Assembly (NCBI GenBank): GCA_963576725.1
Contig: OY755241.1
Span: 2,852,001 to 2,916,000, forward strand
DNA: 64,000 nt
Reading direction: 5' to 3'
Origin: Azorinus chamasolen
Lineage: Eukaryota > Mollusca > Bivalvia > Cardiida > Solecurtidae
Below the pieces are notes generated by a model that did no database searches, was not told the origin of the DNA, and worked only from the letters and a program-made list of their open reading frames with translations. Below are positions 3,234 to 63,488 of the stretch, in pieces. Position 1 is the stretch's first letter. Each line of letters opens with the position of its first letter. The position numbers and the translations under genes are program-made.

Positions 3234-3473
3234 CCCTTCACTTGCTATTCACGTCAATATACGTATCTGTAAATAGTGAAGACCCAGATGAGACAGCTCC
3301 TGCAGGAGCTGTCTCATCAGGGTCTGCACTATTTACATGTTGATTGTGCAACCAGTGCACTCCAGCAGTGATTGCACAGCGAAATACTTGTACACAGTGA
3401 AGATATATGTAATTACAGAACAGGGCATGGGTAAAGAAGGAGAAATGTATTTTAAAATTCAGCAAGAGAAGGG
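3234..3473 (+). mobile_element. Family C TTAA-MITE, copy 1
   Basis: It is 240 bp, begins CCCTTCACTTGCT and ends AGCAAGAGAAGGG, with TTAA on both sides (3230-3233, 3474-3477). The centre is a long hairpin around GACAGCTCCTGCAGGAGCTGTC. The paralogous locus near 5115 has a single TTAA at this position and no element, which is a direct empty site. Confidence 0.9.
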
Positions 3474-3802
3474 TTAAATTTTATCCCTTTAGCAAATTCA
3501 GAGCAGATCCTGATCAGGCTCAATTATCTAAGAATGTTTAATCATTCATAAGCAATGCTATAATAACACATACAATCATCGTTCCTTTGCGTTGGTAACA
3601 TGTTGACCCTGTTGGAATGTTGAAAGTTGAACAGTCCATGATTGTAACTATAAAGTCCATTCAACTTGAAAAGTAAAACATTGCTAGAGGATATTGAAAG
3701 ACACTTGTCTTATAGCTCCTCAAGAGGATCCTGACTGATCTGGGTGACTGCGGCACAGTTTGTAAACACCAGTGCACTTGTATCCTGCATTCAAAAGGTT
3801 AA

Positions 3803-4038
3803 CCTTTCCTTCAAATAAAAACCTTTTCATGCATTTGCAAATAGAGTAGACCGAGATCAGATGGATCCTATAGGAGCCATCTTATCAGGGTCAGCTCTGT
3901 TTGCTTTGTACCCGATATAGCTCTGATTCTACAGTTTTTGCCATTATGCAAAAAGTTCCTTGAAAAGTTTCATTATAAAAATAATAAATATTCATGATGT
4001 CATTATTTCTTACATAATTATTGAACACTGGGAAAGGG
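3803..4038 (+). mobile_element. Family A TTAA-MITE
   Basis: The left end CCTTTCCTTCA follows TTAA (3799-3802) and the right end is GGGAAAGGG. The central hairpin has GATGGATCCTATAGGAGCCATC. The right half carries the subtype box CATGATGTCATTATTTCTTA. Confidence 0.8.
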
Positions 4039-4071
4039 TTTAAACAGTAATACAAACATGTAAATCATTTA

Positions 4072-4705
4072 CTAGTGTGATGTCAACATATGATTGCTAT
4101 GAGGGGCCTAGTAATAAACTGGAAATGCATTCAATTTTTCAAAACACAGTTTAACCCTTTCCCTCATATAAACACCTTTTAACACATTTGCAAACAGAGT
4201 AGACCCAGTACAGTAATTGTTACTTACATTCATCAGTTAAATTAAAGGCTTATTTTGACATTGGGAGAGGTTGTTTGAATGGTGATTTATCATAGAATCA
4301 AACAGTCTGTAGGTATTACAATAAATAATACATTTGTGACAAACATTTAATAATGTGGCAGACTGTTATTGGCCTTGAATATTTAAACCGAATTCATTTA
4401 CTTGGAGTGTCAACATCTGATTGCTATGAGGGCCAGGCCTAGTAATAAACAGGAAATGCATTCAAACAGAGTTGACCCTTACCCTCATATAAACGCCTTC
4501 TAGCACATTTGCTAACAGAGTAGACCCAGTACAGTAATTGTTACTTACGTTCATCAGGTAAAGGCATATTTTGACATTGGGAGAGGTTGTTTGAATGGTG
4601 ATTATATCATAGAATCAGACATCCTCTATGTAATAATGTAGAAACAATTCAATTTGTGAAAAAATTTAATTACGTGACAGACTGTAATTGGTCTTGAATA
4701 TTTTA
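4072..4705 (+). repeat. Tandem duplication of about 315 bp carrying truncated family A ends
   Basis: Two diverged copies (about 4072-4386 and 4387-4705) share GTCAACATNTGATTGCTATG, GTACAGTAATTGTTACTTAC and GACATTGGGAGAGGTTGTTT. Each holds the same family A left end cut off at AGAGTAGACCCAG, so the insertion and truncation came before the duplication. Confidence 0.75.
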
Positions 4706-4710
4706 ACCCT

Positions 4711-5042
4711 TCCTAATGGCCAAGAGCAGTGTGCGGCGCCAACGCTCGTCTGATTTGGTACTTGTCCAGCTAAATTAAAATTGAAAATGATAAAGGGCCA
4801 TTACTCCAAAATTTTGAAATCAAGAGTTATGGTTATTATGTAGGGGGCATTCCTCTCAATGAGTTCTACTAACCCATGAAGATTCATGTTGATACCTCTA
4901 ATATACTTTTCGAGTAATGAGCTACATTAAAGTTTTTGCACGCCGGCAACCACAATGATGACGACGATGACGACTATGACGACTGTAACAACCCAGTGAT
5001 CACAATAGCTCGACTTTTCTTCAAAACAGACGAGCTAATAAG
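4711..5042 (+). repeat. Dispersed repeat ending in GACGAGCTAATAAG
   Basis: CGCTCGTCTGATTTGG near the left end is partly inverted at the right end (AAACAGACGAGCTAATAAG). A GATGACGACGATGACGAC tract precedes the right end, the same architecture as the GTGAGCTAAAAA elements. No coding potential is seen. Confidence 0.5.
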
Positions 5043-5345
5043 AAAAAATTACTGTCTAAATATTAGCAGAATATTTATACTGGCATAACAGAAACTGAAA
5101 AATCATATCTATATTAAACTTTATCCCATTAGCAAGCAGAGCAGATCCTGATCAGGCTCAATGATCTAAGAATTTTAATAATTCATACACAATATTCTAT
5201 AATAACACATACAATTATCGTTCCTTTGCATTGGTAACATGTCCATCCTGTTGGAATGCTGAATGTTGAAAGTTGAACAGTCTGTGATTGTAACTATGAA
5301 CTCCATTCAACTTGAAAAGTAAAACATTGCTAGAGGATATTGATT
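5037..5345 (+). repeat. Diverged paralog of 955-3720 with empty insertion sites
   Basis: It aligns in order with 955-990, 3185-3230 and 3474-3700 (TATTAGCAGAATATTTATA, CTGGCATAACAGA, TTTATCCC, AACATTGCTAGAGGATATTG). It lacks the family E element and family C copy 1, so it preserves the sequence before both insertions. Confidence 0.85.
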
Positions 5346-5458
5346 GACAAATTGGACTACACAATTCTAATAATGTTCCTTTCCTCTAGTAAATGCTCCT
5401 TTTAGGTAGATTTATTCAAAGAGTCTGGGTCTAAAAATAGCCCATGGAGGAAAGGATT
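5345..5458 (-). mobile_element. Family B fragment (one half)
   Basis: It matches the family B half carrying CTCTAGTAAATGCTCCTTTT and ends AATAGCCCATGGAGGAAAGGATTAA. The hairpin and the other half are missing. Confidence 0.6.
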
Positions 5459-7132: not shown

Positions 7133-7600
7133 GAGGTCCAGATAAGATGCATTAACTAAAACATTTTTAAGAATAACTGCTTTATTTCTCCATCAAGCCC
7201 TATTTTGTGACCACTCTTTAGAATCACTTCGATACTTCTCATATATATATTGAGTCATTTCGAGACGATTCTAAAGAGTGGCCACAGTGTAGGGTTTAAT
7301 TGGTGGAGAAATGTTTAATTGGTGGAGAAATGACAATTTTAGTATTGGGTATGCACCCTTAACCCTTTCCTCCATAAAATGCCTTTCTACGCCTCTGTAA
7401 AAATCACCTGTTGAGAAACCATTGTGATAAATAGAGCATTTGCTCCTATAGGAGCAAATGCTCTATTTATCACAATGGTTTCAAACTACAAAATTCTAAA
7501 TTTTTCCTTTTCTCTAGTTAATGCTTCTTTTCGGTAGATTAATCCAAAGAGGTTGGATCTAAAAATAGCCTATGAGGGAAAGGGTTATCTGTAGCTCTGG
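7133..7600 (+). mobile_element. Family D hairpin element, split by a family B element
   Basis: It starts GAGGTCCAGATAAGATGC and contains the D hairpin (ACTCTTTAGAATC... against GATTCTAAAGAGTGG) plus GGTGGAGAAATG. Family B interrupts it at 7363-7583, and the D sequence TATCTGTAGCTCTGG resumes after that. A 20-bp stretch (TTTAATTGGTGGAGAAATG) is duplicated near 7296-7330. Confidence 0.7.
7363..7583 (-). mobile_element. Family B TTAA-MITE nested in family D
   Basis: The ends are CCCTTTCCTCCATA and CTATGAGGGAAAGGG; the left flank is TTAA (7359-7362) and the right flank is TTAT. The hairpin is near-perfect: AAACCATTGTGATAAATAGA, centre GCATTTGCTCCTATAGGAGC, then the complementary arm. Confidence 0.8.
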
Positions 7601-8017: not shown

Positions 8018-8210
8018 GCAAACAGTGCAGACCCTGATGAGAGGACTCCTCTAGAAGCCCTCTCAAATGGGTCTACACTGTTTGCAATGGACATTGGTGT
8101 CTTATCGCCCACACTGAAGAGATTAGTCCTTGGCCTGGCATCTGAAAATAAGTTGGATCCAGACAAGACTGCGAGTAACTCAGCATCTCATCAGGATCCA
8201 AGCTGTTAGT
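8018..8210 (+). repeat. Two solo hairpin cores without recognisable MITE ends
   Basis: At 8018-8092 GGCAAACAGTGCAGACCCTG opens a hairpin closed by GGGTCTACACTGTTTGC. At about 8150-8205 AGTTGGATCCAGACAAGACT pairs loosely with CATCAGGATCCAAGCTG. The second type recurs degraded near 15980, 22928, 29490, 41910 and 57570. The small ORFs spanning both strands here reflect the palindromes. Confidence 0.55.
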
Positions 8211-8890: not shown

Positions 8891-10198
8891 CGAGGGGTGA
8901 TTGATAAGTCCGTGGCCTGAGGCAGGGAGCAGCAGTTTGACCTCAATATTTTCCTTTATTTTTCAACGTAGTCACCTAGCTTGCAAGCTTACACACTTTG
9001 TCCAACGGTGTTGGAGCATTTGAATACCTTTCCTGTAGAACGGGGCATCTTGGGCCTGAAGAAATGCTTCAACAGCTTGTTTGACGTCATCATCAGTGCA
9101 AAAATGGTGGCAGCTGAGTTCCGTTTTCATCTTGGGGAATAGCTACTGGTAATAGTCAGAGGGAGCTAAATTAGGGGAATACGGTGGATGCTCAACAATT
9201 TGGAAACCACATTCCTGAATGGCAGCCATGGCAACAGTGGACATGTGTGCTGGAGCATTGTCCTGATGGAAAAGCACACCTAATGACAGCTTGCCACACC
9301 TTGTCTCCTTGTTTTTTTCACGAAGCTGCCTCATGAGGTTAGTATAATACCTTCCGGTTATCAAGATAATCCACTAGCAACACACCTTTCACATCCCAGA
9401 AAACTGTGGCCATCACCTTCCCAGCGGCTGTTGTTGCCTTGGCTTTTTTCAGGGGTGGTGATCCTGGGTGTTTCCACTGTTTTGACTGTTGTTTTGTCTC
9501 GGGTTCGAAGTGGTGAACCCATGTTTCACCAACAGTTACAAACTGCTTGAGAAACTTCTCCTGATCCCACTCAAACATGACAAGGTTTTCCCTGGACACG
9601 TTGCACCGAACTCCTTTCTGGTCGAGACTCGGAAGTTTTGGGACCCATCTGGCAGAAACCTTTGTCATTTGCAAATCATTATGGATAATTGCATGGACTC
9701 GTTCCTTTGATATACCCAGCTCACAGTGTAGCAATGTACCGCTGTGTAATTCGCCAATCTGCCATAATCATATCATGGATTTTATTGATGGTGTCCTTTG
9801 AGGTGACAGTTGGTGGCCTGCCAGGACGTGGGTCATCTTCAAGACTCTCTCTACCGTGTTTAAATTCAGCGGTCCATTTTTTCACCATGCTATAACATGT
9901 GGCATGCTCCCCTAATGTAGCTACCATATGTCCTCACGAATCTCCTTAGGTGATAAGCCTTTGAGGCCAACTTCAACAGGTTTTGAATAATCGCGCCATG
10001 GCCAACGTTGTCCATTTGCTTAGAAGTACTCATAGTAAGTAGCTTTGAGAATCAAATTCTGGCAAACAACAGAGAGAAAAAAATCCTTCTGTCTCTGCAG
10101 AGTGATTATTATAACACCTTTTCTACATGGACATCAAATGGTATGTTTATAAGTGGTCTGTTTCTACCCAAGGCCATGGACTTATCAATCACCCCTCG
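8891..10198 (-). mobile_element. mariner element 1 (DD34D), about 1.31 kb, inactive
   Basis: Terminal inverted repeats begin CGAGGGGTGATTGATAAGTC (left) and end GACTTATCAATCACCCCTCG (right), flanked by TA on both sides (8889-8890, 10199-10200) as expected for Tc1/mariner. Total length matches an autonomous mariner. The only gene inside is the broken minus-strand transposase. Confidence 0.92.
9060..10033 (-). pseudogene. mariner transposase, multiply broken
   Basis: The product family cuts and pastes mariner DNA at TA sites, with an N-terminal paired helix-turn-helix DNA-binding region and a DDD catalytic domain. A plausible start is ATG at 10031-10033. Frame shifts split the sequence near 9928-10000, between 9721 and 9734, and between 9339 and 9364; an in-frame stop at about 9143 cuts the C-terminus just after the third Asp. 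Seen: GRPPTVTSKD linker, ARWVPKL (WVPHEL-like), HHFEPETKQQSKQW, HQDNAPAH, YSPNLAPSDY. The second and third Asp are 34 residues apart. The motif normally GDETW reads VGETW, so the first catalytic Asp is Gly. It cannot be active. Confidence 0.9.
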
Positions 10199-10730: not shown

Positions 10731-10976
10731 CCCTTCTCTTGCTGAATTTTAAAATACATTTCTCCTTCTTTACCCATGCCCTGTTGTATAATTACATAAT
10801 TATATCTTCACTGTGTACAAGTAGTTCGCTGTGCAATCACTGCTGTGGAGTGCACTGGTTGCACAATCAACTTGTAAATAGTGCAGACCCTGATGAGACA
10901 GCTCCTGCAGGAACTGCCTCATCTGGGTCTTCACTATTTACAGGTAGGTATATTGACGTGAATAGCAAGCGAAGGG
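10731..10976 (-). mobile_element. Family C TTAA-MITE, copy 2
   Basis: It begins CCCTTCTCTTGCTG after TTAA and ends AATAGCAAGCGAAGGG, then ATAA (a changed TTAA). The hairpin centre is CTCCTGCAGGAACTGCCTC, with two arm changes. Confidence 0.88.
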
Positions 10977-15058: not shown

Positions 15059-15277
15059 CCCATTTGCTCCCAGTGGATTCTTCCATGCTTATATATTGGA
15101 TTAGTCTATCTTTTATCTAAGGGATGTCTGGTCTAAATTTTCATTTTTGTTTTGTTTTATATTGAATTTCCTATCAGCAAACAGTGTAGACTCTGATCAG
15201 ATGCCGCATTATGCGGCGTCTGATCAGTCTACACTGTTTGCCTATGTCCCATATATGGGATCGTGGGAGCAAATGGA
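15059..15277 (+). mobile_element. Family H TTAA-MITE with an unusual hairpin centre
   Basis: It begins CCCATTTGCTCCCAG and ends TGGGAGCAAATGG, with TTAA at 15055-15058 and 15278-15281. The hairpin uses the same outer arms as family A (GCAAACAGTGTAGACTCTGA) but its centre is GATGCCGCATTATGCGGCGTC instead of the GCTCC palindrome. It is the only copy seen here. Confidence 0.8.
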
Positions 15278-15485: not shown

Positions 15486-15727
15486 CCCTTTACTCCATAC
15501 ATATGCCTTTCTACGCCTTTGCAAACAGAGCAGACTCAGATCAGATGGCTCCTGTAGGAGCCATCTGATCTGAGTCTGCTCTGTTTGCTTATGAAAACAA
15601 TACAGATATGGTTGTACAGTTTCTGGCATTGCCAACATTTTCAGTGTTCACCTGCCAGCGTAAAAAAATAAAAAATAATATTCATAACATCATTATTTCT
15701 TACATGAATATTCATGGAGTAAAGTGT
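15486..15727 (+). mobile_element. Family A TTAA-MITE with a perfect hairpin
   Basis: It begins CCCTTTACTCCATAC after TTAA and ends GGAGTAAAGTG. The hairpin arms are perfectly complementary over about 31 nt on each side of TGTA. They include a private change: GACTCAGATC in the left arm is matched by GATCTGAGTC in the right, where most copies have GACCCAGATC. Confidence 0.85.
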
Positions 15728-16115: not shown

Positions 16116-17413
16116 CGAGGGTCATGCAAAAAGTTCTGTCATTGGGTTCAGATTTCTTAAGTGATACGTGTAATTAAAAAATATTTTTATTACAAACCTT
16201 CGAAGTATTCCCCCTTTGTAACCTTTTTACCCAGTCTCGAGAAGCGAAAAAATAGTCTTTTTTAGGAATCTGTTGGAGACACTGATAGATAGCGCTGCCA
16301 GACATTTTTTTATTCAGGCTAGGAAATAAGAAAAAAGTCACAGGGTCTCATGTCAGGTGAATAAGGTGGATGGTTTACAACTTTGACATTTTCAGAAGCC
16401 AGAAAAGACTTAACAGCCTCGCACTTGTGAGAGGAGGCATTATCATGTATAAGATGGACACCTGCCCATCCTTTGCATGGACGTTTCTTATTGTAAAAAT
16501 CTTTGACTTTCTTTAGTACAGAGTTCTTGTAGAATTGTCCAGTGACTGTACGACCAGATGGGCAAGGCACTTGAACGACTGGCCCACTTGAATTAAAGAA
16601 TATTGCGTACAACATCTTTTTTGAACTTATGGTTCTCTTGGCAATACATGGACGTTTCTGATCTTTTCGCTTCCATTGCTTATTATCAGTCCTTCTCTGT
16701 GGCTCAAACATGTGCACCCAGGTTTCGTCACCTGTAAGCAAGTTAGAAATAACCCGACTATCACAACCTTTGTATGTTTTCAAAAGTTCCCGGGCACATT
16801 TAAGGCGTTGTTTCTTTTGTTCGTCAGTGAGCAAATGAGGTACCCACCTAGCGCAAACCTTTCTCAGGTCCAAACGCTTTTTCAGAATTGTTTACACACT
16901 GCCTTCTGATATGCCAGTACAACTAGCTATATCTTTCACAGACAATCGCACATCCTGCTCGACCACAACCTTTACAGCAGCGATGTTTGCCTTACTAACA
17001 GAGGTTTTAGGTCTACCAGGACGGGTGTCATCTTCAACAGATAATTTCCCAGCTTTAAAAGCCTTGACCCACCTAAAAACTGTGCGTATTGAAATGGCAT
17101 TAGGTCCATATATACCACACAATTCTTCAAATATCTGCTTTGAATCTATATCAAGCCTAATGCGACATTTGATATAGCTACGAATTTCAGCCTTTTTGTC
17201 CATTTTACATTGAGACACGTAAATTGGTCAGTGTATATGACTGCATGTATTTCAATTTGAAAAAACTCTGTCATTTGTAAAGCAATTTGCACGGAATAAA
17301 TGGATATCGTTAGATAGTGAACACACTATTCAGGTGCAGTGAAGCGTTTTAAAATATACATGGTTTAAAACTACGGAAACCCGTTAGTGACAGAACTTTT
17401 TGCAGGACCCTCG
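16116..17413 (-). mobile_element. mariner element 2 (DD34D), about 1.30 kb, almost intact
   Basis: The inverted ends start CGAGGGTCATGCAAAAAGTT (left) and finish AACTTTTTGCAGGACCCTCG (right), flanked by TA at 16114-16115 and 17414-17415. The sequence differs clearly from element 1, so it belongs to a separate mariner lineage. Confidence 0.93.
16180..17218 (-). pseudogene. mariner transposase with one stop codon and one frameshift
   Basis: It reads from ATG at 17218 on the minus strand. N-terminal helix-turn-helix region: FRWVKAFKAGKLSVEDD, then GRPKTSVSK. A TAA at 16892-16894 interrupts the frame after about 108 codons, and the same frame then continues through ARWVPHLLTDEQ, TGDETWVHMFEP (first Asp present), LIHDNASSH (second) and YSPDMRPCDFF (third). 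The spacing from second to third Asp is 34 residues. Just after the third Asp, a run of six T (five would keep frame) shifts the frame. The shifted frame continues as about 45 plausible residues, including a GSAIYQCLQQ motif. All catalytic residues survive, so it died recently compared with element 1. Confidence 0.92.
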
Positions 17414-22215: not shown

Positions 22216-22457
22216 CCCTTTTCTTGCTGAATTTTAAAATACATTTCTCCTTCTTTACCCATGCCCTGTTGTATAATTACATATATCTTCACTGTGTACA
22301 AGTATTTCGCTGTGCAATCACTGCTGTGGAGTGCACTGGTTGCACAATCAACTTGTAAATAGTGCAGACCCTGATGAGACAGCTCCTGCAGGAGCTGTCT
22401 CATCTGGGTCTTCACTATTTACAGGTAGGTATATTGACATGAACAGCAAGCGAAGGG
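22216..22457 (-). mobile_element. Family C TTAA-MITE, copy 3
   Basis: Complete, TTAA on both sides (22212-22215, 22458-22461). The ends are CCCTTTTCTTGCTG and AGCAAGCGAAGGG. Both strands carry ORFs of about 70 codons because of the palindrome; the same ORFs recur in other C copies and are not genes. Confidence 0.92.
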
Positions 22458-23152: not shown

Positions 23153-23394
23153 CCCTTTCCCTGTTCTATATTTAGGCCATTTTTCAGTATCTACTGAATA
23201 TTCATTAACAAAATAGTTATAAAGAAATATGGAAGGTGGAACATTGTAACTATTTCAGAAAGTAAAGAAACAGATCTTTCAAATTCCACTAGCAAACAGA
23301 GCAGACCCTGATCAGATGGCTCCTCTAGGAGCCGTCTGATCTGGGTCTACTCTGTTTGCAAATGCGTGAAAATGTGTTTATATGAGGGAAAGGG
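23153..23394 (-). mobile_element. Family A TTAA-MITE
   Basis: It begins CCCTTTCCCTGTTCTATA, includes TATGGAAGGTGGAACATTGT and a hairpin centred on GATGGCTCCTCTAGGAGCCGTC. Its right TTAA (23395-23398) is shared with family C copy 4. Confidence 0.87.
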
Positions 23395-23398
23395 TTAA

Positions 23399-23641
23399 CC
23401 CTTCGCTTGCTATTCACGTCAATATACCTACCTGTAAATAGTGAAGACCCAGATGAGACAGCTCCTGCAGGAGCTGTCTCATCAGGGTCTGCACTATTTA
23501 CAAGTTGACTGTGCAACCAGTGCACTCCACAGCAGTGATTGCACAGTGAAATACTTGTACACAGTGAAGATATAATGTAATTATACAACAGGGCATGGGT
23601 AAAGAAGGAGAAATGTATTTTAAAATTCAGCAAGCGAAGGG
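23399..23641 (+). mobile_element. Family C TTAA-MITE, copy 4
   Basis: Complete: CCCTTCGCTTGCTATTCACG to CAGCAAGCGAAGGG, TTAA on both sides. The hairpin retains the typical arm mismatch (CCCAGATG left, CATCAGGG right). Confidence 0.93.
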
Positions 23642-24943: not shown

Positions 24944-25166
24944 CCCTTTCCCTGTTCAATATTCATGTAAACATGTATGACATCTGATGAATATTTATTA
25001 GCTGCATTTGCTTTGACATACCCCGGTATGCTGTAGAATCAGATCTATATCATGTCAATAGCAATTTACAGAGCAGACCCTGATCAGACGGCTCCTATAG
25101 GAGCCATCTGATCTGGGTCACCTCTGTTTGTAAATGCATGAAATAGCGTTTATATGAAGGAAAGTG
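24944..25166 (-). mobile_element. Family A TTAA-MITE
   Basis: TTAA at 24940-24943 and 25167-25170. It begins CCCTTTCCCTGTTCAATA, has a hairpin GACGGCTCCTATAGGAGCCATC and ends GAAGGAAAGTG. Confidence 0.85.
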
Positions 25167-25170: not shown

Positions 25171-25412
25171 CCCTTTCCCTCATATAAATGTGTTTTCACG
25201 CATCTGCAAACAGAGTAGACCCAGATCAAACGGCTCCTAGAGGAGCCGTCTGATCAGGGTCTACTCTGTTTGCTAATAGAATTTCAAAGCTCTGTGTCTT
25301 TACTTTCTAAAATGGCTACAATATTCCAATTTGCATATTTCGTTATAACTATTTTGTCCATGAATATTCAGTAGGTATTGAAATTTGAAATAAACATAGA
25401 ACAGGGAAAGTG
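25171..25412 (+). mobile_element. Family A TTAA-MITE abutting the previous copy
   Basis: It shares TTAA 25167-25170 with the upstream element. It begins CCCTTTCCCTCATATAAATG, with hairpin centre CGGCTCCTAGAGGAGCCG, and ends ACATAGAACAGGGAAAGTG before TTAA. Confidence 0.88.
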
Positions 25413-25471
25413 TTAAACATTTACAAAATGATTGTATCCAGATAAGCTACACTGTAGCTCTAGACAACTGT

Positions 25472-26116
25472 GTAGACTCTGAGCTCCTCTCTAAGCTCCT
25501 CTCTGAGCTCCTCTCTGAGCTCCTCTCTGAGCTCCTCTCTAAGCTCCTCTCTGAGCTCCTCTCTAAGTTCCTCTCTGAGCTCCTCTCTAAGCTCCTCTCT
25601 GAGCTCCTCTCTAAGCTCCTCTCTGAGCTCCTCTCTAAGCTCCTCTCTGAGCTCCTCTCTAAGCTCCTCTCTGAGCTCCTCTCTAAGCTCCTCTCTAAGC
25701 TCCTCTCTGAGCTCCTCTCTGAGCTCCTCTCTGAGCTCCTCTCTGAGCTCCTCTCTAAGTTCCTCTCTGAGCTCCTCTCTGAGCTCCTCTCTGAGCTCCT
25801 CTCTAAGTTCCTCTCTGAGCTCCTCTCTAAGCTCCTCTCTGAGCTCCTCTCTAAGTTCCTCTCTGAGCTCCTCTCTAAGTTCCTCTCTGAGCTCCTCTCT
25901 GAGCTCCTCTCTAAGCTCCTCTCTGAGCTCCTCTCTAAGCTCCTCTCTGAGCTCCTCTCTAAGCTCCTCTCTGAGCTCCTCTCTAAGCTCCTCTCTGAGC
26001 TCCTCTCTAAGCTCCTCTCTGAGCTCCTCTCTAAGCTCCTCTCTGAGCTCCTCTCTAAGCTCCTCTAGCTCCTCTCTAAGCTCCTCTAGCTCCTCTCTGA
26101 GCTCCTCTCTAAGCAT
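25472..26116 (-). repeat. 12-bp minisatellite (GAGCTCCTCTCT), about 53 units, open on the minus strand
   Basis: Units are GAGCTCCTCTCT, AAGCTCCTCTCT and AAGTTCCTCTCT, often alternating as a 24-bp pair. Two 6-bp shorter units lie near 26070-26095. The minus strand has a 218-codon ORF from ATG at 26114-26116 made of (REEL)n with a short VYTVV tail. All variants are synonymous in that frame, and also in the plus frame reading (SSSL)n. The flanks (TGTAGACTCTGAGCTCCT left, GACCTACTCTTTTGGCAAAT right) look like the two arms of a hairpin core, so the array probably expanded from GCTCCT. A real protein is unlikely. Confidence 0.85.
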
Positions 26117-26294
26117 CCCTGTGACCTACTCTTTTGGCAAATGCCTGTACACTCATTTTTCCACATTGAAACGGACACTATAGGTTTTCTCAAATTTGTT
26201 TCAAAAGCTAATCAAAATATCAAATGTTTTGGATATTGATGCAGCAATTTGTGTTTCTAAGTTTGCAGAAAGTTTAATCCTAATTTAAACTGTA

Positions 26295-26464: not shown

Positions 26465-26706
26465 CCCTTTCCCTCATATCAATGTGTTTTCACACATTTG
26501 CAAACAGAGTAGACCCAGATTAGATGGCTCCTATAGGAGCTGTCTAATCAGCATTTGCTCTGTTTGCTAATGGACTTTGATAGATCTGTGTCTTTACTTT
26601 CTAAAATGGGTACAATGTTCCATCTTCCATATTTCATTATTACTATTTTGTCTAGGAATATTCAGTAGGTATTTAAATTTGGACTAAACATGGAACAGGG
26701 AAAGGG
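26465..26706 (+). mobile_element. Family A TTAA-MITE with paired arm change
   Basis: Complete between TTAA 26461-26464 and 26707-26710, from CCCTTTCCCTCATATCAATG to GGAACAGGGAAAGGG. The arms read GATTAGA and TCTAATC where the consensus has GATCAGA and TCTGATC, a compensated change. Confidence 0.9.
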
Positions 26707-28386: not shown

Positions 28387-28572
28387 CCCTTAATGTGGGG
28401 CAATCAAGTATTACAAGACCTTTGCAAACAGTGTAATCTGGATCAAAGGGCTCCTGAAAGAGCCCTTTGATCAGGGTCTGCATTGTGTAAATGTGTCATA
28501 ACAATAATTGTTCTTCTGTGATAATTTGAATTTGGATATATTATTTTTCATTAATATTCAGTAGATTAAAGG
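28387..28572 (+). mobile_element. Family G element with a distinct compensated hairpin
   Basis: It shares TTAA 28383-28386 with the previous copy. The hairpin reads GATCAAAGGGCTCC, TGAA, AGAGCCCTTTGATC, so the inner arms differ from other copies yet still pair. The right end is degraded. Confidence 0.6.
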
Positions 28573-31658: not shown

Positions 31659-31903
31659 CCCTTTCCTTCATATAAACGTCTTTTCACGCATTTGCAAACA
31701 GAGTAGACCCAGATCAGACGGCTCCTATAGGAACCGTCTGATCAGGGTCTGCTCTGTTTGTTAATGGAATTTGATAGATCTGTTTCTTTACTTTCTAAAA
31801 TGGCTGTAAGATTCCACCTTCCATATTTCATTATTACTATTTTGTCCTAGAATATTCAATAGGTATTGAAATTTGGAATAAACATAGAACTCGGAAAGAT
31901 CGA
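31659..31903 (+). mobile_element. Family A TTAA-MITE, near consensus
   Basis: CCCTTTCCTTCATATAAACG, arms CAAACAGAGTAGACCCAGAT and ATCAGGGTCTGCTCTGTTTG around GACGGCTCCTATAGGAACCGTC, then AGATCTGTTTCTTTACTTTC and the TGAAATTTGGAATAAACATA end, slightly degraded. Good reference for the family: the arms pair except for one conserved mismatch in CCCAGATC/GATCAGGG. Confidence 0.9.
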
Positions 31904-33465: not shown

Positions 33466-33606
33466 GATAAATCATCATTTCTCTACCAAACCCTATGTTG
33501 TGACCACTCTTTGAGACGATTCTAAAGAGTGGTCACAACATAAGGTTTAGTGGAGGAATAACAAGTTATTCTTGAAATGTTTTAATTTACCCATCTTATC
33601 TGGTCC
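33466..33606 (-). mobile_element. Family D hairpin element
   Basis: CATTTCTCTACCAAACCCTA, hairpin CACTCTTTGAGACGATTCTA...GAGTGGTCACAACATAAGG, end CATCTTATCTGGTCCCCTG. The inner part of one arm is shortened. Confidence 0.75.
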
Positions 33607-33652: not shown

Positions 33653-33893
33653 CCCTTCACTTGCTATTCGCGTCAATATACCTACTTGTAAATAGTGAAG
33701 ACCCAGATGAGACAGCTCCTGCAGGAGCTGTCTCATCAGGGTCTGCACTATTTACAAGTTGATTGTGCAACCAGTGCACTCCACAGCAGTGATTTCACAG
33801 CGAAATACTTGATCACAGTGAAGATTATGTAATTATACAACAGGGCATGGGTAAAGAAGGAGAAATGTATTTTAAAATTCAGCAAGCGAAGGG
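33653..33893 (+). mobile_element. Family C TTAA-MITE, copy 5
   Basis: CCCTTCACTTGCTATTCGCG to CAGCAAGCGAAGGG, TTAA at 33649-33652 and 33894-33897. The right TTAA is shared with the next element. Confidence 0.93.
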
Positions 33894-34116: not shown

Positions 34117-34487
34117 GCCCTTTCTTCCATATATATATTATGTTATGTTTAGTACAAGTCAACACAGCCTGGTTATAATTAGTGTTAATGTAAATACTTT
34201 ATCACTTGTACCTCATATCACATATTTATACATGTGATGAGTGTAAAAATAAAATCTAAATCTAAATCCATGAATATTCATGATAGAAACAGATACATCA
34301 TGAATATTAATTATATTATTTTCTATAATAGCACAATGGACAAACACAATTTTGGCCATGGCAGAAACTAAATTATATCTATATTAGTTCCTAAGCAAAC
34401 AGAGCAGACCCTGATCAGACAGCTCCTATAAAAGCTGTCTGATCTGGGTCTACTCTGTTTGCAAACGCATATTTATGGAGGAAAGGG
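34117..34487 (-). mobile_element. Family A interrupted by a LINE 3' end
   Basis: CCCTTTCTTCCATATA, then foreign sequence, then CATGAATATTCATGATAGAA, GGCCATGGCAGAAACT, hairpin ACAGCTCCTATAAAAGCTGT and GGAGGAAAGGG before TTAA. Confidence 0.78.
34135..34268 (+). mobile_element. LINE 3' end with (ATCTAA)n tail inside family A
   Basis: It ends GTGTAAAAATAAAATCTAAA followed by ATCTAAATC repeats, an AATAAA-like signal plus hexanucleotide tail. Its start is truncated, as is usual for LINE copies. Confidence 0.55.
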
Positions 34488-34848: not shown

Positions 34849-35290
34849 CAGTAAAACCTCTCTTAACCCATTACCTCATAGGCTATTTTTAGATACAAGT
34901 AACAACCTGTTTGAATAAATCTACCAAAAAGGAGCATTAACTAGAGAAAGGAAAATTTTTAGAATTTTGTAGTTTGAAACCATTGTGATAAATAGAGCAT
35001 TTGCTCCTCTAGGAGCAAATGCTCTATTTATCACAGTGGTTTCACAAGATAACTTTTACAGAGTCGTCAAAAGTCGCCAATATGAGGGAAAGAGTTAACC
35101 TGAATTTTAAAGAATAAAAGAAGTCTTTTTAGACAGACGGCTCCTCAATGCAGGGTGAAAGTCATGCAGAGTCTGAAGGCTCTTTAGAGAGCTTTCTACA
35201 TGACTTTCAACCTGCATTAAGTTGCCACCTGTCTGAATGACCGACACTGATATTAATTTTGATGTCCTGTTTGGAGGTGTTTTACTGTAA
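34849..35290. mobile_element. Family E split by family B
   Basis: It begins ACAGTAAAACCTCTC and ends GGAGGTGTTTTACTGTA. The E hairpin pairs AATGCAGGGTGAAAGTCATG with CATGACTTTCAACCTGCATT. Family B sits in its TTAA at 34863-34866. Confidence 0.78.
34867..35094 (+). mobile_element. Family B TTAA-MITE nested in E
   Basis: CCCATTACCTCATAGGC to CAATATGAGGGAAAGAG, TTAA on both sides (34863-34866, 35095-35098). Hairpin centre GCATTTGCTCCTCTAGGAGC. Confidence 0.9.
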
Positions 35291-37054: not shown

Positions 37055-37488
37055 TACCCCTCTACTGCCTATGCCTTCGCAAATAGAGTAGACCCAGATC
37101 AGACGGCCCATGTAGGAGCCGTCTGTTCTGGGTTTGCTCTGTTTGCTAACGGTATGATAAAGATCTGATTCTACAGCTTCTGCCGTAGCCAAACTTTCCC
37201 GTTATAAAATGCATCTAATAGATATTCGTGTTACTATTTCTTATATGAATATTCCCTCATATAGACGTGATTTCACGCATTTGCAAACAGAGTAGACCCA
37301 GATCAGACGGCTCCTAGAGGAGCCGTCTGATCAGGGTCTGCTCTGTTTGCTTACAGAATTCGATAGATCTGTTTCTTTACTTTCTAAAATGTCTACAATG
37401 TTCCACCTTCCATAATTCTTCATAACTATTTTGTTAATGAATATTCAATAGGTATTGAAATTTGGCCTAAATACCGAACAGGGAAAGG
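37055..37488 (+). mobile_element. Two adjacent family A copies
   Basis: 37055-37250: TATGCCTTCGCAAATAGAGT, hairpin ACGGCCCATGTAGGAGCCGT, right half to TATATGAATATT. 37251-37488: TTCCCTCATATAGACGTG, hairpin GACGGCTCCTAGAGGAGCCGTC with clean arms, TTCCACCTTCCATAATTC, end CGAACAGGGAAAGGTTTAA. Confidence 0.8.
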
Positions 37489-42224: not shown

Positions 42225-42567
42225 ACGCATATGTTTTGTTTACCTTGACAGAAACAATATGACTCACATCTATATTATTCCATAAGCAAACAGTGCAGAC
42301 CCTGGTCAGAAGGCTCCTACATGAACAGTCTGGGCCCATGCTTATAAAACGTTTAGTTGAGTCTGAGTTCGTTCTCAAGTTTTTGATTGGTCAGATTTGA
42401 GCCTTTGGCTCAAATCTGACCAATCAAACGCTTGAGAACTCAAATCTGACCAATCAAAAGCTTGAGAACGAAACTCAGACTCAACTAAAAGCTTTATAAG
42501 CATGGACCCTGATCTGGGTCTACTGTGTTTGTAAAGGCGTGAAACGGCCATTATATGAGGGAAAGAG
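42225..42567 (-). mobile_element. Family A with complete family F in its hairpin
   Basis: ATTATTCCATAAGCAAACAG, GCAGACCCTGGTCAGAAGGC up to AACAGTC, then F, then GATCTGGGTCTACTGTG and ATATGAGGGAAAGAGTTAA. Confidence 0.75.
42332..42509. mobile_element. Family F, most complete copy
   Basis: GGGCCCATGCTTATAAAAC at one end and GCTTTATAAGCATGGACCC at the other. The hairpin is GATTGGTCAGATTTGAGCC, TTT, and its complement, with one extra direct copy on the right. Confidence 0.82.
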
Positions 42568-42622: not shown

Positions 42623-42858
42623 CCCTTTCCTTCATATAAACGTGCTTCACGCATTTGCAAACAGAGTAGACCCAGATCAGACGGTTCCTTTACGAGCCAT
42701 CTGATCAGGGTCTGCTCTGTTTGCTAAGGGAATTTGAAAATATCCGTTTCTTTACTTTCTAAAAGGGCTACACTGTTTCACCTTCCATATTTCGTTATAA
42801 CTAGTTTGTCCTTGAATAGTCAAGTAGGTATTGAAAATTTAATTAAACATAGAACATT
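42623..42858 (+). mobile_element. Family A TTAA-MITE, right end degraded
   Basis: CCCTTTCCTTCATATAAACG, hairpin GACGGTTCCTTTACGAGCCATC, TTTCACCTTCCATATTTC, AACATAGAACATTTTTAA. Confidence 0.8.
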
Positions 42859-43086: not shown

Positions 43087-43385
43087 CAATAAAACCTCTC
43101 TATAACGGCCAACTACATCAAATAGTTTGTGTTAAATGCATGTGGCTGCTTTAAACAAGGTGAAAGTAAAACAGAACGCTCCTGTAGGAGCGTTCTGTAT
43201 AACTTTCACCTTGCTTTAAGCAGCCACCTGCCCTAAATACCAATACAATTTAGTGGTCGTTATAGAGAGGTTTTACTGTACAGTAAAACTTCTCCATACC
43301 GACCACTTAATTGTATTAATTGCCCTAAATACCAATTAATTAATACAATTTAGTGGTCGTTATAGAGAGGTTTTACTGTACAGTA
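43087..43385. mobile_element. Family E element and an adjoining second E end
   Basis: ACAATAAAACCTCTCTATAA to GAGAGGTTTTACTGTA (about 43085-43280), hairpin centre GAACGCTCCTGTAGGAGCGTTC. A second, core-less piece (ACAGTAAAACTTCTCCATAC to GAGAGGTTTTACTGTA) follows directly to 43380. A truncated family A core is at 43425-43520. Confidence 0.78.
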
Positions 43386-49216: not shown

Positions 49217-49458
49217 CCCTTCTCTTGCTGAATTTTAAAACATATTTCTCCTTCTTTACCCATGGCCTGTTGTATAATTACATATATCTTCACTGTGTAC
49301 AAGTGTATCGCTGTGCAATCACTGCCGTGGAGTGCACTGGTTGCACAATCAACTTGTAAATAGTGCAGACCCTGATGAGACAGCTCCTGCAGGAGCTGTC
49401 TCATCTGGGTCTTCACTATTTACAGGTATGTATATTGACGTGAATAGCAAGCGAAGGG
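49217..49458 (-). mobile_element. Family C TTAA-MITE, copy 6
   Basis: CCCTTCTCTTGCTG to AGCAAGCGAAGGG, TTAA at 49213-49216 and 49459-49462; the latter is shared with the next element. Confidence 0.93.
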
Positions 49459-50847: not shown

Positions 50848-51089
50848 CCCTTCGCTTGCTATTCACGTCAATATACCTACCTGTAAATAGTGAAGACCCA
50901 GATGAGACAGCTCCTGCAGGAGCTGTCTCATCTGGGTCTGCACTATTTACAAGTTGATTGTACAACCAGTGCACTCCACAGCAGTGATTGCACAGCGAAA
51001 TACTTGTACACAGTGAAGATATATGTAATTATACAACAAGGCATGGGTAAAGAAGGAGACATGTATTTTAAAATTCAGCAAGCGAAGGG
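50848..51089 (+). mobile_element. Family C TTAA-MITE, copy 7, with fully matched hairpin
   Basis: Complete with TTAA on both sides. The arms read GACCCAGATGAG and CTCATCTGGGTC, so the mismatch present in most C copies (CATCAGGG) has been repaired towards the left arm. Confidence 0.94.
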
Positions 51090-51154
51090 TTAAATATAAA
51101 TGTAAGACTCCGTCCACTTTGACTATTGGTTATACAATACACTCAAGATGTTAA

Positions 51155-55119: not shown

Positions 55120-55361
55120 CCATTCGCTTGCTATTCACGTCAATATACCTACCTGTAAATAGTGAAGACCCAGATGAGACAGCTCCTGCAGGAGCTGTCT
55201 CATCAGGGTCTGCACTATTTACAAGTTGATTGTGCAACCAGTGCACTCCACAGCAGTGATTGCATAGCGAAATACTTGTACACAGTGAAGATATATGTAA
55301 TTATACAACAGGGCATGGCCAAAGAAGGAGAAATGTATTTTAAAATTCAGCAAGAGAAGGG
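55120..55361 (+). mobile_element. Family C TTAA-MITE, copy 9
   Basis: CCATTCGCTTGCTATTCACG to CAGCAAGAGAAGGG, TTAA at 55116-55119 and 55362-55365. Hairpin with the usual mismatch. Confidence 0.93.
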
Positions 55362-56289: not shown

Positions 56290-56494
56290 CAGTAAAACCT
56301 CGCTAATGCGACCACTTAATAAACAGCCACTGGCGCCATTTAAAGCAGGTGGTTGCTTAATGCAGGACGAAAGTTATGCAGAAAGCTCCTATAGGAGCTT
56401 TCTGCATAACTTCCGTCCTGCATTAAGCTACCACCTGCCTCTGTCACCCAGAATTATGCCCCTTTTTGGTGGTCGCATTAGCGGGGTTTTACTG
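56290..56494. mobile_element. Family E, complete with TA flanks
   Basis: CAGTAAAACCTCGCTAATGC to GCATTAGCGGGGTTTTACTG, TA at 56288-56289 and 56495-56496. Arms pair over about 43 nt around GAAAGCTCCTATAGGAGCTTTC. Confidence 0.92.
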
Positions 56495-56529: not shown

Positions 56530-56880
56530 TTTAACTTATATAGACATAATGAATATTCACTGAACATCATGAAAATTAATTTGAATAGTTTTTACTATGG
56601 CACATTGACACCGGAATCTTTGGCCATAATAATAGAATCATATCTATATTATTTCATAAGCAAACAGAGCAGACCCTGATCAAACAGCTCCTATAGGAGC
56701 CATCTGATCTGGGTCTACTCTGTTTGCAAAGGTATAGAAAGTCATATTTATGGACTATCTTTCCTTCATACAAATGCTTTTTAAATTTATACAAACAGAG
56801 TAGACCCAGATGAGATGGCTCACCTAGGAGACATGTCTGATCAGTGTAGATCTGCTCTGTTTGTTTATTACATACATGTA
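56530..56880. mobile_element. Two family A copies, head to head and truncated
   Basis: 56530-56755 (-): AACATCATGAAAATTAATTT, hairpin ACAGCTCCTATAGGAGCC, ATTTATGGA. 56762-56875 (+): TTTCCTTCATACAAATGC, hairpin GATGGCTCACCTAGGAGAC, cut after CTGCTCTGTTTG. Confidence 0.68.
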
Positions 56881-57647: not shown

Positions 57648-57894
57648 CCATTCTCTTGCTGAATTTTAATAAAATACATTTCTCCTTCTTTATACCCATG
57701 TCCTGTTGTATGATTACATATATCTTTACTGTGTACATGTATTTTGCTGTGCAATCACTGCTGTGGAGTGCACTGGTTGCACAATCAACTTGTAAATAGT
57801 GCAGACCCTTATGAGACAGCTCCTGCAGGAGCTGTCTCATCTGGGTCTTCACTATTTACAGGTAGGTATATTGACGTGAATAGCTAGCGAAGGG
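57648..57894 (-). mobile_element. Family C TTAA-MITE, copy 10
   Basis: CCATTCTCTTGCTG to AGCTAGCGAAGGG, TTAA on both sides. It carries two small insertions (TAATAAAATAC, TTATACCC) relative to other copies. Confidence 0.9.
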
Positions 57895-59171: not shown

Positions 59172-59417
59172 CCCTTCGCTTTCTGTTCCCGTCAATATAC
59201 CTGTATACCTGTAAATAGTGAAGACCCAGATGAGACAGCTCCTGCAGGAGCTGTCTCATCTGGGTCTGCACTATTTACAAGTTGATTGTGCAACCAGTGC
59301 ACTCCACAGCAGTGATTGCACAGCGATATACTTGTACACAGTGAAGATATATGTAATTATACAACAGGGCATGGGTAAAGAAGGAGAAATGTATTTTAGA
59401 ATTCAGCAAGAGAAGGG
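59172..59417 (+). mobile_element. Family C TTAA-MITE, copy 11, nested in family A
   Basis: CCCTTCGCTTTCTGTTCCCG to CAGCAAGAGAAGGG, TTAA at 59168-59171 and 59418-59421. Its hairpin is fully matched (GACCCAGATGAG / CTCATCTGGGTC), like copy 7. Confidence 0.93.
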
Positions 59418-59761: not shown

Positions 59762-60006
59762 GCAGTAATCCCCCTCTAAACCTGAATTGTAGTAGAGGAG
59801 AATTTAGATACTTTCAGGCAGATGGTTGCTTAATGCAGGGTGAAAGTCATGCAAAAAGCTCCTTTAGGAGCTTTTTGCATGACTTTCACTCTACATTAAG
59901 CTGCCACCTGTCTCCAAGACCTGCATTAACCCTGCATTAAGCTGCCACCTGTCTCCAAGACAGATATTCATACTAGATTTAATGTCTGGTTTAGAGAGGT
60001 TTTACT
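59762..60006. mobile_element. Family E with internal 40-bp duplication
   Basis: GCAGTAATCCCCCTCTAAAC to GAGAGGTTTTACTGTA. Hairpin centre AAAAGCTCCTTTAGGAGCTTTT; AAGCTGCCACCTGTCTCCAA occurs twice. Confidence 0.78.
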
Positions 60007-61377: not shown

Positions 61378-61493
61378 GTTAATAAACATTTATGACTGTG
61401 AGGATTTATAACTTGACGTGAATATTTATTAATTTTTATAATATTACATTTTCGGGTGATTTTTTGCCTTGATAAAAATGTATACATGTAATT

Positions 61494-61995
61494 AAAGGGA
61501 ATGTCCCTACATCTGACGCGTTTCATAAACACTTAAAATATACAAAACTCATTTGTTTATATGCTGAAAAGTAGTATATCGCAAAAAGACCCATCCAATT
61601 ACCGTTTATAATGACAAAACATCCATGTGTTTGATATCGCCGATCCCGGTTTTACTCCCCGATGTTTCAGTTTTATTCGGGTTGGGTTTTAGTTTCGTAA
61701 CTGTTCGCCATATTCGCGATTCTCCGATCACTTCCGAGAAAGGTATTACGTAAACAATTTAGGGATCGGTTGATCATCGGCAAAACGCGGAAGAATTTAA
61801 CGGAAAAGGCCGATAATATTGTGTTGTAGAACAAAAATTATCAGTATTGATGAAATCGGTTTATTTGTATCACAGGGGCATTTTTCGATATAAGTTCAAA
61901 TTGGGAACCTTCATAATAATGATAGAGCATAACAAATACCAAGTTTTATGATATTATTGAAAATGTGCGATCATTGTAGGGACCTCCTCTTTAAA
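61494..61995. mobile_element. Family I MITE, about 0.5 kb
   Basis: TTAAAGGGAATGTCCCTACA on the left and TGTAGGGACCTCCTCTTTAA on the right are imperfect inverted ends. The interior is less AT-rich (CGATCCCGGTTTTACTCCCC) and has no ORF. A fragment is at 23791-23920. Confidence 0.75.
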
Positions 61996-61999
61996 TCTA

Positions 62000-62340
62000 T
62001 ATAAACTAAAGAAACGGGTCTATTAGATTCCATAAGAAAACAGAGCAGACCCTGATCAAATGGCTCCTGGGAGTCATGGATCTACTCTGTTTGCAAAGGC
62101 CTGCATGAATAAGCATTTATATCAGGGAAAGGGTTAACAATTTATCTCATCAATATTCATGTAAGAAAATTGAATACATGAATACTACTTCATTTAAGTT
62201 TTACAATGGGATACAATTAAGGTTTTCTTAAGCAAACAGAGCAGACCTTAATCAGAAGACTGCTAATGAGGAGTCAGGTGGGGGTCTATTCTATTTTGTA
62301 ATGGTGTCAACATAATTCTCTATCAGGTAAAGGATTTAAA
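62000..62340 (-). mobile_element. Two family A copies
   Basis: 62000-62133: AGAAAACAGAGCAGACCCTG, shortened hairpin (AAATGGCTCCTGGGAGTCAT), end ATCAGGGAAAGGG. 62138-62335: ATTTATCTCATCAATATT, decayed hairpin, end ATCAGGTAAAGG. Confidence 0.68.
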
Positions 62341-62344
62341 GAAA

Positions 62345-62818
62345 TAAATAATGACGTCATGAATATAAAATAATTAAATTAATTTGTTATAATAGCACTT
62401 AGACACATGAATTTTTGGTCATGGCAGCAACTGTAAAAAAAGTAAAATACCTAGTTATAGTCTACTTTCAGTCCGAATGACCGCTCAGCCGACTGTACAT
62501 TTACTCCCCTGGTCATTGAGTCATTGGCCTACAATATTGAGCACTGCTAACATATGGCGCAATCATGCAGCCGCAGTACCGGCGTGACCCTCACAGGTAC
62601 CCATTTTAACCCCTGGGTGGAGAGGATGTGCGGGTGGGAGACACGGAAAAGTGTCTCTGAAATTTCTGGGAGGGACCGGGATTTGAACCCCGGACCTCCG
62701 GACTGATAGTCAAGCGCGTTACCACTAGACCACCGCCACCTGGAGAATAAGATCTATATTATTTTATAAGCAAACAGAGCAGATCCTATAGGAGCCATAT
62801 TTATGGAGTATAGAGTTA
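62345..62818 (-). mobile_element. Family A split by a tRNA-derived SINE
   Basis: AATAATGACGTCATGAATAT and GTCATGGCAGCAACTGTA, then the SINE, then AATAAGATCTATATTATTTT, AGAGCAGATCCTATAGGAGC and GGAGTATAGAGTTAA. One hairpin arm is deleted. Confidence 0.75.
62437..62744 (-). mobile_element. tRNA-derived SINE, full length about 0.3 kb
   Basis: On the minus strand it begins CCAGGTGGCGGTGG, with an A box TGGTCTAGTGG (within 62715-62732) and B box GGTTCAAATCC (62679-62689), the internal Pol III promoter. The body includes GGGGTTAAAATGGGTACCTG and the T-rich end TATTTTACTTTTTTT. The tRNA-like head and conserved body suggest a mollusc SINE of the Meta/V type (inference). It has no protein and depends on a LINE. 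Confidence 0.82.
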
Positions 62819-62926
62819 ACAGTGTAGATGATAATAGGAGATGCTGCATTTCATCTTCATAAAAATATTTGCTATTTTTTTTCATTGGAAAATCTTTATA
62901 TTCATTTATAATTTGATGAAATATAG

Positions 62927-63156
62927 ACATAAATACTTGAATTGCTCTGATCTAATATTTCGACCACTAAGGGCCTTTTTCAAAGATTAACATGTCAAAA
63001 TACACGTCACATTTTCGTTACATGCATTCAGCCATAAAATATCTCTTTGATTGTATGGCTGAATGCATGTGACAAAAATGTATTTTGACATGATAATCTT
63101 TGAAAAAGGCCCTTAGTGGTCGAAATATTAGATCAGAACAATTCAAGTATTTATGT
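62927..63156. repeat. Perfect-type palindrome with about 100-bp arms
   Basis: ACATAAATACTTGAATTG...GGCTTTTTC-type left arm (to 63036) is inverted at 63054-63156 (GAAAAAGGCCCTTAGTGGTC, GATCAGAACAATTCAAGTAT). Loop about 17 bp. One arm also occurs alone at 13113-13213 inside the hAT-like foldback. The ends suggest a MITE; its target duplication is not clear. Confidence 0.8.
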
Positions 63157-63264
63157 ATAATATTATATTAATTCCCTATTTTGGAATATTTTCTTCATTG
63201 GGAAATATAGACAATTAACCTTATATAGAGACGCCTTTTCACACATCTGGTCAGTGTCAGCTTT

Positions 63265-63488
63265 TGAACCTTTTCCCTCATATAAATGACTTTTCATGCA
63301 TATGCAAACAGAGAAGACCCTGATCAGATGGCTCCTGTAGGAGCCATCTGATCAGGGTCTGCTCTGTTTGCTTATGAAATTATAGTCAGACTTTCAATTT
63401 AATCTCTACTAATTCCTGTGTACATATACCATTATACAAAATAAATATTCATGACATTATTATTTTTTACATAAATATTGAACAGGGA
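63265..63488 (+). mobile_element. Family A with a fully symmetric hairpin
   Basis: CCTTTTCCCTCATATAAATG, arms AGACCCTGATCAGATGGCTC and GAGCCATCTGATCAGGGTCT match exactly, here both with the CCTGATC form, end ATTGAACAGGGAAAAAG. Confidence 0.8.

What the first reader, a model, noticed from the sequence alone, without database searches (positions are those of the whole stretch)
3234..63488. One hairpin core shared by MITE families with unrelated ends, with compensated arm changes
Families A, C, G and H (TTAA) share outer arms of the type AAACAGNGNAGACCC...GGGTCTNCNCTGTTT. A, B, C and the TA-flanked family E share the centre GCTCC-N4-GGAGC. Arms change together: GATTAGA/TCTAATC at 26520, TCAAAGGGC/GCCCTTTGA at 28445, GACTCAGATC/GATCTGAGTC at 15535, GCCGC/GCGGC at 15200, AACGCTCC/GGAGCGTT at 43170 and 50165. 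Most copies keep one arm mismatch (CCCAGATC against GATCAGGG), but C copies at 50848 and 59172 and the A copies at 15486 and 63265 are fully matched. This fits arm-to-arm gene conversion or template switching within palindromes, or selection for the RNA/DNA hairpin. A stem of 30-45 bp with a 4-nt loop would also be a possible small-RNA precursor.
Basis: partly seen in the sequence, partly recalled or inferred. Interest (0 to 1): 0.78.

Follow-up and report, generated by a model that had tools for sequence, protein, structure and literature searches.

The report
Hairpin core shared by MITE families
Very many small mobile-element copies in this genome carry related hairpins at a set distance from one end, and paired changes on the two sides of the hairpin are commoner than chance, which makes them a natural test of how DNA hairpins stay matched.

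Summary
A homologous hairpin of about 68 bp occurs in TTAA-flanked MITEs with different ends. A profile finds 84 cores in the window and 177 in 200 kb sampled elsewhere; the reversed-sequence control has none at that threshold. The core starts exactly 35 nt inside one TTAA end in 63 of 101 copies with a recognised end, although the leaders are mostly unrelated. Between five subfamily consensi, arm differences are compensated at 14 positions and uncompensated at 2. Genome-wide, at one base pair of the B hairpin, 39,315 copies are unchanged, 617 changed on one side, 21 on both; 17 of those 21 are complementary, of all three kinds, against about 0.85 expected. G-U mismatches are not preferred to A-C. 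This favours DNA-level arm-to-arm copying over selection on RNA pairing. Against simple copying: an A.A mismatch persists with one polarity in the A, C, G, T and R consensi, and local B and C samples show almost no matched changes. Only one pair was tested genome-wide. The closest published case is CMITE of corals. Small RNAs were not testable.

The parts
50848..51089 (+). C-family element, full length 242 bp: leader 50848-50882 (35 nt), hairpin core 50883-50950, trailer to TTAA at 51090; A.A site matched
3269..3336 (+). C core
10874..10941 (-). C core
22355..22422 (-). C core
23434..23501 (+). C core
33688..33755 (+). C core
49356..49423 (-). C core
55155..55222 (+). C core
57792..57859 (-). 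C core
59211..59278 (+). C core, A.A site matched
15521..15588 (+). A core, fully matched (leader CCCTTTACTCC...)
63304..63371 (+). A core, matched at the A.A site, one mismatch at pair 11
23292..23359 (-). A core (leader CCCTTTCCC...)
25064..25131 (-). A core
25206..25273 (+). A core
26500..26567 (+). A core with paired GATTAGA/TCTAATC change
31694..31761 (+). A core
34395..34462 (-). A core
37079..37146 (+). A core
37283..37350 (+). A core
42657..42724 (+). A core
56660..56727 (-). A core
8018..8085. G-type (GAGGG) core, degenerate; orientation unsure (read +, - by arm score)
28424..28490 (+). core with TCAAAGGGC/GCCCTTTGA arms
15176..15244 (.). V-type core (GCCGC/GCGGC)
7415..7482 (+). B hairpin, in a TTAA element with an A-like leader
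34975..35044 (-). B hairpin
43138..43231 (.). E2 hairpin (AACGCTCC/GGAGCGTT)
56345..56438 (.). E1-like hairpin
59828..59901 (.). E1-like hairpin

Best explanation
These are non-autonomous TTAA-target DNA elements (piggyBac type by target site and CCC end motif) that carry one old hairpin module at a fixed place, most often starting 35 bp inside one end, while their ends and fillers have been replaced. Shown: homology of the core, its preferred spacing, the different leaders, and the excess of matched arm changes. Inferred: the arms are kept complementary by a DNA-level process, replication template switching or hairpin correction within a copy, that copies one arm's mutation into the other; it acts rarely per copy (17 matched pairs against 617 one-sided at the one B pair tested) but adds up along lineages and makes families whose arms differ together. 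Inferred: the module is kept because it helps the element transpose, sitting just beyond a 35-bp end as long as the minimal piggyBac left end. The A.A mismatch of constant polarity may be part of what is kept.
For: Homology and abundance: 299 cores at E<1e-3 in window plus L002-L033, best reversed-control E 0.013. Spacing: 63 of 101 copies with a recognised end have a 35-nt leader (A 28 of 54, C 24 of 26, R 5 of 5, G 3 of 7, T 2 of 8, V 1 of 1), and 19 of 21 pairs of leader consensi are no more alike than shuffled. Module exchange: B has an A-like leader with another hairpin about 50 nt from the end. Arms; non-CpG matched doubles in A 30 at the true partner against 3-9 at 12 shifted partners, in T 18 against 0-7. 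Genome-wide B pair: 39,315 unchanged, 617 one-sided, 21 two-sided of which 17 complementary (C/G 9, G/C 6, T/A 2); expected about 2.4 two-sided and 0.85 complementary; P about 2e-5 for 17 of 21 from the one-sided spectrum alone. The nine matched C/G copies differ outside the hairpin by 0.223 among themselves and 0.203 from the rest; among the four most enriched bases shown none is in more than 3 of the 9. At the C-family A.A site, when the right A has changed with the rest exact, it is T in 48 of the first 53 loci listed. No G-U excess. Template switching as a maker of compensatory changes: PMC8794818 (abstract and opening text seen), PMC8604942 (search listing only).
Against: The A.A mismatch survives in 133 of 166 gapless-arm cores, and the arm asymmetry to which it belongs agrees with the end side in 86 of 92 copies; a homogenising process should erase it. 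The second C mismatch was corrected in 0 of 59 C copies. Local samples show little in situ correction: B 82 one-sided and 0 matched in 26 copies; C 35 one-sided and 0 matched in 59 copies, many chosen by an exact inner core. G is inconclusive (9 against 0-9). Only one base pair was tested genome-wide; a second did not complete. The 48-of-53 excess could be one C sub-lineage that differs only there; flank trees cannot exclude it (16 changes against 17.5 shuffled). 38 of 101 copies do not have exactly 35 nt, and T and G scatter. No autonomous transposase with these ends was found among the few loci read.
Confidence: 0.58

Rival explanations
1. Selection keeps the hairpin as an RNA (small-RNA precursor or structured transcript); compensatory mutations arise singly and are selected in source copies.
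For: Eight cores fold at -38.7 to -64.7 kcal/mol with z -7.8 to -16.6; covariation with conserved internal mismatches looks precursor-like.
Against: One-sided G.U and A.C mismatches are about equal (113 and 124 in A; 49 and 47 in T); compensated family differences are mostly transversions; matched changes occur in scattered inserted copies that are unlikely to be under selection (inference). No Rfam family reaches its gathering score in the window. Palindromes fold by construction.
Confidence: 0.12
2. Matched arm changes are only inherited sub-lineages: a few master elements with both arms different were amplified, and arms of inserted copies decay independently.
For: E1 variants at four pairs are present in both arms in 7-9 of 25 copies; local B and C samples show no matched changes.
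Against: 17 of 21 two-sided B changes are complementary, in three different kinds at one pair; the nine C/G copies show no common base outside the hairpin. Two-sided masters would themselves need an explanation, since one-sided masters should be commoner.
Confidence: 0.27
3. The core spreads by recombination or conversion between MITE families rather than by descent with constraint.
For: Leader and hairpin occur in new combinations (A-like leader with the B hairpin); the core is very common, about 0.9 per kb in the sample.
Against: Families keep distinct core sequences; the preferred offset is fixed, which independent insertion of a core would not give.
Confidence: 0.35
4. Chance palindromes with CpG-driven parallel mutation; no real compensation.
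For: CpG pairs in A do mutate in parallel.
Against: The excess remains after CpG pairs are removed, and the B pair tested is not in a CpG of the consensus.
Confidence: 0.02

Closest known systems
CMITE families of Acropora corals (PMC2872659; abstract and sections 10, 11 and 15 read, other passages by term search)
   Same: TTAA target, CC[C/T]T-type ends, several families with different terminal repeats sharing a conserved internal region (75 bases there, about 68 here), piggyBac relationship, origin of the internal region unknown.
   Different: CMITEs are about 100 bp with 13-14 bp ends, about 1600 copies; C elements here are 242 bp and the core lies 35 nt from one end and most often 139 nt from the other. 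A term search of that text found no 'hairpin', 'palindrom' or 'secondary structure'. The CMITE sequence was not at hand, so homology is untested.
piggyBac and piggyBat transposon ends (PMC11707139, passages by term search)
   Same: A 35-bp minimal left end (LE35) in piggyBac; end motifs next to palindromic sites bound by the transposase C-terminal domain. TTAA target.
   Different: Those palindromes are short (14 and 19 bp) and lie within the end; here the hairpin is 68 bp and starts after 35 bp. Equal length may be coincidence.
Template-switch homogenisation of inverted repeats (PMC8794818 abstract and opening; PMC8604942 and PMC7202029 search listing only)
   Same: One-step compensatory changes and arm homogenisation in imperfect palindromes.
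   Different: Described there for RNA genes, yeast coding sequence and E. coli; here for a mobile element with many thousand copies, with direct counts of one-sided and two-sided changes at one pair.
Foldback and palindromic MITEs
   Same: Long inverted repeats, short non-coding elements.
   Different: The hairpin here is internal and off-centre, not the terminal repeat. Recalled class, no call.

Membership tests
MITE of the piggyBac/TTAA superfamily | TTAA target duplication and CC[C/T]T-type ends | tested here: met
   Leaders start CCC... after TTAA and trailers end ...GGG before TTAA; commonest 12-mers after TTAA starting CC[C/T] are CCCTTCGCTTGC and CCCTTTCCCTGT, 20 each. Not met in every copy: an end was recognised in 101 of 166
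MITE of the piggyBac/TTAA superfamily | Short, non-coding, high copy | tested here: met
   C element 242 columns in 59 copies; about 55,000 C cores allowing 3 mismatches (the pattern also matches its own reverse strand, so the two counts are largely the same copies)
MITE of the piggyBac/TTAA superfamily | Mobilised by an identified autonomous partner with the same ends | tested here: inconclusive
   110 PF13843 matches scored in the genome; four loci and three second copies read, no matching ends found
CMITE | Internal region more conserved between families than the terminal repeats | tested here: met
   Core shared while 19 of 21 leader pairs are no more alike than shuffled
CMITE | Sequence homology of the internal region to coral CMITE | not testable with these tools
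   No coral sequence held; the sections read give no core sequence
miRNA or small-RNA precursor | Processed small RNAs from the stem | not testable with these tools
   No small-RNA reads; no Rfam match at gathering score in the window

The most novel reading that the evidence does not exclude
The hairpin is a portable cis-acting transposition module: it keeps a 35-bp distance from the end and a constant-polarity A.A mismatch while neighbouring pairs covary, moves between elements with different ends, and is kept matched by a hairpin-copying process from which the mismatch is somehow spared.
Probability: 0.2. Interest if true: 0.75.

Novelty: new variant of a known kind. Interest (0 to 1): 0.52.

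Why it matters
Families with tens of thousands of near-identical hairpins are a natural counting experiment for template switching: one-sided, complementary and non-complementary two-sided changes can be counted at every pair in one genome. The preferred offset with exchangeable ends also turns the CMITE puzzle (why is the inside more conserved than the ends?) into a testable spacing rule for TTAA elements.

Tried and rejected
Looked for the core in viral contigs with four patterns: no match. One pattern in genome contigs gave one contig end in a Spirochaeta MAG, read as host DNA. Two protein searches on open frames through the core found P0002 and P0003, then 16 further proteins on other contigs, organisms not named; several of these match mainly through a string before the core. 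Looked for the autonomous piggyBac: 110 domain matches, but the seven loci read did not show its ends. Considered F elements as part of the system: they sit in or next to cores but have their own sequence. Considered the A-to-T change at the C A.A site as proof of conversion; downgraded because a sub-lineage differing only there cannot be excluded. Divergence of core against flanks within C and A (C core 0.020, leader 0.039, trailer 0.038; A core 0.062, leader 0.107, trailer 0.260) is biased by finding copies through the core, so I do not build on it. The first shifted-partner test left out the wrong asymmetric column and kept CpG pairs; one search replaces it. Paper searches for this kind of element (listings) showed me no paper on this hairpin in molluscs; they cover only the held open-access library. 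Passages of two bivalve genome papers were seen (PMC10294476; PMC8905726); neither passage set describes it.
Full report
What the window is. It is G000:C7:2852001-2916000 of a 1.72-Gb assembly in 137 contigs. A bivalve is my inference, not shown.

Observation. A nucleotide profile built from 24 cores finds 299 cores at E<1e-3 in the window plus L002-L033; the same sequences reversed give nothing below 0.013. The window holds 84 and the twenty evenly placed 10-kb stretches L010-L029 hold 177, about 0.9 per kb; extrapolated, about 1.5 million in the genome (inference from five contigs). The C core pattern with up to 3 mismatches counts 55,097 forward and 55,048 reverse; a typical copy also matches on its other strand with 2 mismatches, so this is about 55,000 copies.

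Anatomy. 166 of the 299 cores have gapless arms by my score cut; the other 133 were not used in arm tests. They fall into A (89), T (28), C (26), G (15), R (5) and V (3); A and G are old and mixed, and V is a loose group. A TTAA end (TTAACCCT, at most one mismatch, within 70 nt) was recognised upstream in 101. The core starts exactly 35 nt inside it in 63: A 28 of 54, C 24 of 26, R 5 of 5, G 3 of 7, T 2 of 8, V 1 of 1. Where several candidate ends tied, the script took the one nearest 38 nt. Of 21 pairs of leader consensi, 19 are no more alike than shuffled beyond the first six bases; the exceptions are two A leaders (18 of 29, p 0.0005) and A against C (14 of 29, p 0.02). The V, T, G and second A consensi rest on 1, 2, 3 and 4 copies, and a third A group of 6 was left out of that comparison. 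On the other side A and C both most often have 139 nt to the far TTAA (14 and 12 copies), with unrelated sequence (41 of 127 identical, 35 expected, p 0.12), but G, T and R differ, so only the 5' spacing is general. B has an A-like leader and then a different hairpin about 50 nt from the end: leaders and hairpins look exchangeable. Eight of nine E2 copies shown have a variant of CAGTAAAACCTCTCTATAACGGCC on at least one side (by eye), another element type.

The A.A mismatch. CCCAGATC against GATCAGGG is an A.A mismatch kept in 133 of 166 cores. The arm asymmetry, of which it is the main part, agrees with the end side in 86 of 92 copies where both can be read and disagrees in 6. Copies without a recognised end were oriented by their arms. 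It is in the consensi of A, C, G, T and R although pairs around it have changed.

Arms change together. On 25 window cores (21 distinct), 12 of 31 pairs changed on both sides, covariation 0.244 against 0.123 shuffled and at most 0.038 slid. Between five consensi, compensated differences occur at 14 positions and uncompensated at 2; 38 of 62 pairwise compensated differences are transversions (not independent). Within A, non-CpG complementary double changes number 30 at the true partner and 3-9 at partners shifted by 1-6; in T 18 against 0-7; in R 5 against 0 (5 copies); in C 1 against 0-1; in G 9 against 0-9, so G is inconclusive. In other hairpins: D 9 against 0-3 (9 copies), E2 4 against 0-2 (12 copies), E1 56 against 3-12 (25 copies, much of it shared by 7-9 copies), B 0 and F 0. 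CpG pairs must be left out because both arms mutate there independently.

In situ or inherited. In 26 local B copies there were 82 one-sided and no matched changes; in 59 C copies 35 one-sided and no matched. Scaled for their youth these samples are too small to exclude a low rate. Genome-wide the answer is sharper. For one A-T pair of the B hairpin with the other 32 bases exact, 39,315 loci are unchanged, 617 changed on one side (298 plus 319) and 21 on both. Independence predicts about 2.4 double changes and 0.85 complementary ones, using the one-sided spectrum C 22, G 38, T 40 that I counted by eye from the 100 rows listed. Observed: 17 complementary (C/G 9, G/C 6, T/A 2) and 4 not. From the spectrum alone P is about 2e-5. 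15 of the 17 are G-C pairs where 60 in 100 one-sided changes are to G or C, a weak hint of GC bias. I fetched 20 of the 21 loci; 15 entered an alignment with 14 other B copies, the rest lacked a flank signature I asked for. The nine C/G copies differ outside the hairpin by 0.223 on average and by 0.203 from the rest, with no diagnostic base among the four best shown. For G/C only 3 copies could be compared, and 2 of them share one base seen in 3 of 26 others. This argues against a recent sub-lineage, not against an old one. It is one pair only; a second was asked for and not answered.

At the C A.A site, copies with left A and right not A, rest exact, number 1671 forward and 1653 reverse. The first 100 rows are 53 loci: T 48, C 3, G 2 (T loci appear on both strands). 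T restores the match. In 59 C copies, 21 with T, T copies are scattered on flank trees about as randomly as shuffled labels (16 changes, shuffled mean 17.5), but the family is star-like, so a master differing only at this base is not excluded; 20 of 20 comparators not selected at this site had A. One flank base is in 7 of 21 T copies and 3 of 38 others.

RNA or DNA. Eight cores fold strongly, as palindromes must. One-sided mismatches show no preference for G.U over A.C (113 and 124 in A, 49 and 47 in T, 27 and 26 in G, 4 and 8 in C, 5 and 2 in R). That speaks against selection for RNA pairing; it does not exclude small RNAs, which were not tested.

Relatives. L001, the end of a contig in a Spirochaeta MAG, carries a V-like core. 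The MAG name ends in P3, and passages of PMC6461927 list a Spirochaeta-like MAG P3 from the clam Phacoides pectinatus; the strain name itself is not in that text, so the link is my inference. Reading the core as protein gives strings such as ANSADPDQTAPTGAV; 17 proteins including P0003, on contigs up to 3.7 Mb, match P0003 at E<=0.1. They share NDPKFSD...ANSAD or close variants and only some span both arms. So core-like sequence occurs in other assemblies, organisms not named.

Known comparison. CMITE of corals (PMC2872659) is the same puzzle: different ends, one conserved inside, TTAA, piggyBac. Homology is untested. The 35-nt leader equals piggyBac LE35 (PMC11707139, passages), which suggests that the core begins just beyond the transposase footprint; this is inference. 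Template switching as a source of one-step compensatory change is described elsewhere (PMC8794818, abstract).

Verdict. The hairpin module, its preferred offset and the excess of matched arm changes are real. DNA-level arm copying is the best account of the matched changes, with sub-lineage history as a serious partner; the conserved A.A mismatch and the reason why the module is kept remain open.

Noticed in passing
window 35858-35926, 42371-42439; L016:491, L013:1165: A palindromic element (F, GTTCTCAAGCTTTTGATTGGTCAGATTTGAGCC) with flanks ATGCTTATAAA lies in or next to GGGTCC/GGACCC of hairpin cores in several of the seven copies seen, as if it targets the core or arose from it.
   Followed up: partly
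window 16319-17227 and 9339-9767, - strand: Open frames that look like mariner/Tc1-type transposases (by eye; no family search run).
   Followed up: no
window 25400-26183: Long tandem array of a 12-base-like unit, open in several frames (LREE, LLSE, LSSS).
   Followed up: no
L001:1-110: V-like hairpin core at the end of a Spirochaeta MAG contig, probably clam host DNA joined to the bacterial contig.
   Followed up: partly
L030/L034, L031/L035, L032/L036: piggyBac-domain genes lie in near-identical duplicated stretches (3.4 to 4.1 kb aligned, 98.7-100% identical), with MITE ends between the two domain pieces in L032.
   Followed up: partly
window 7192-7300, 33467-33569; L010:7398, L019:508: A longer hairpin family (D, CCACCAAACCCTATGTTGTGACCACTCTTTAGAATCGTCTC) with matched double changes 9 at the true partner against 0-3 at shifted ones in 9 copies.
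   Followed up: partly
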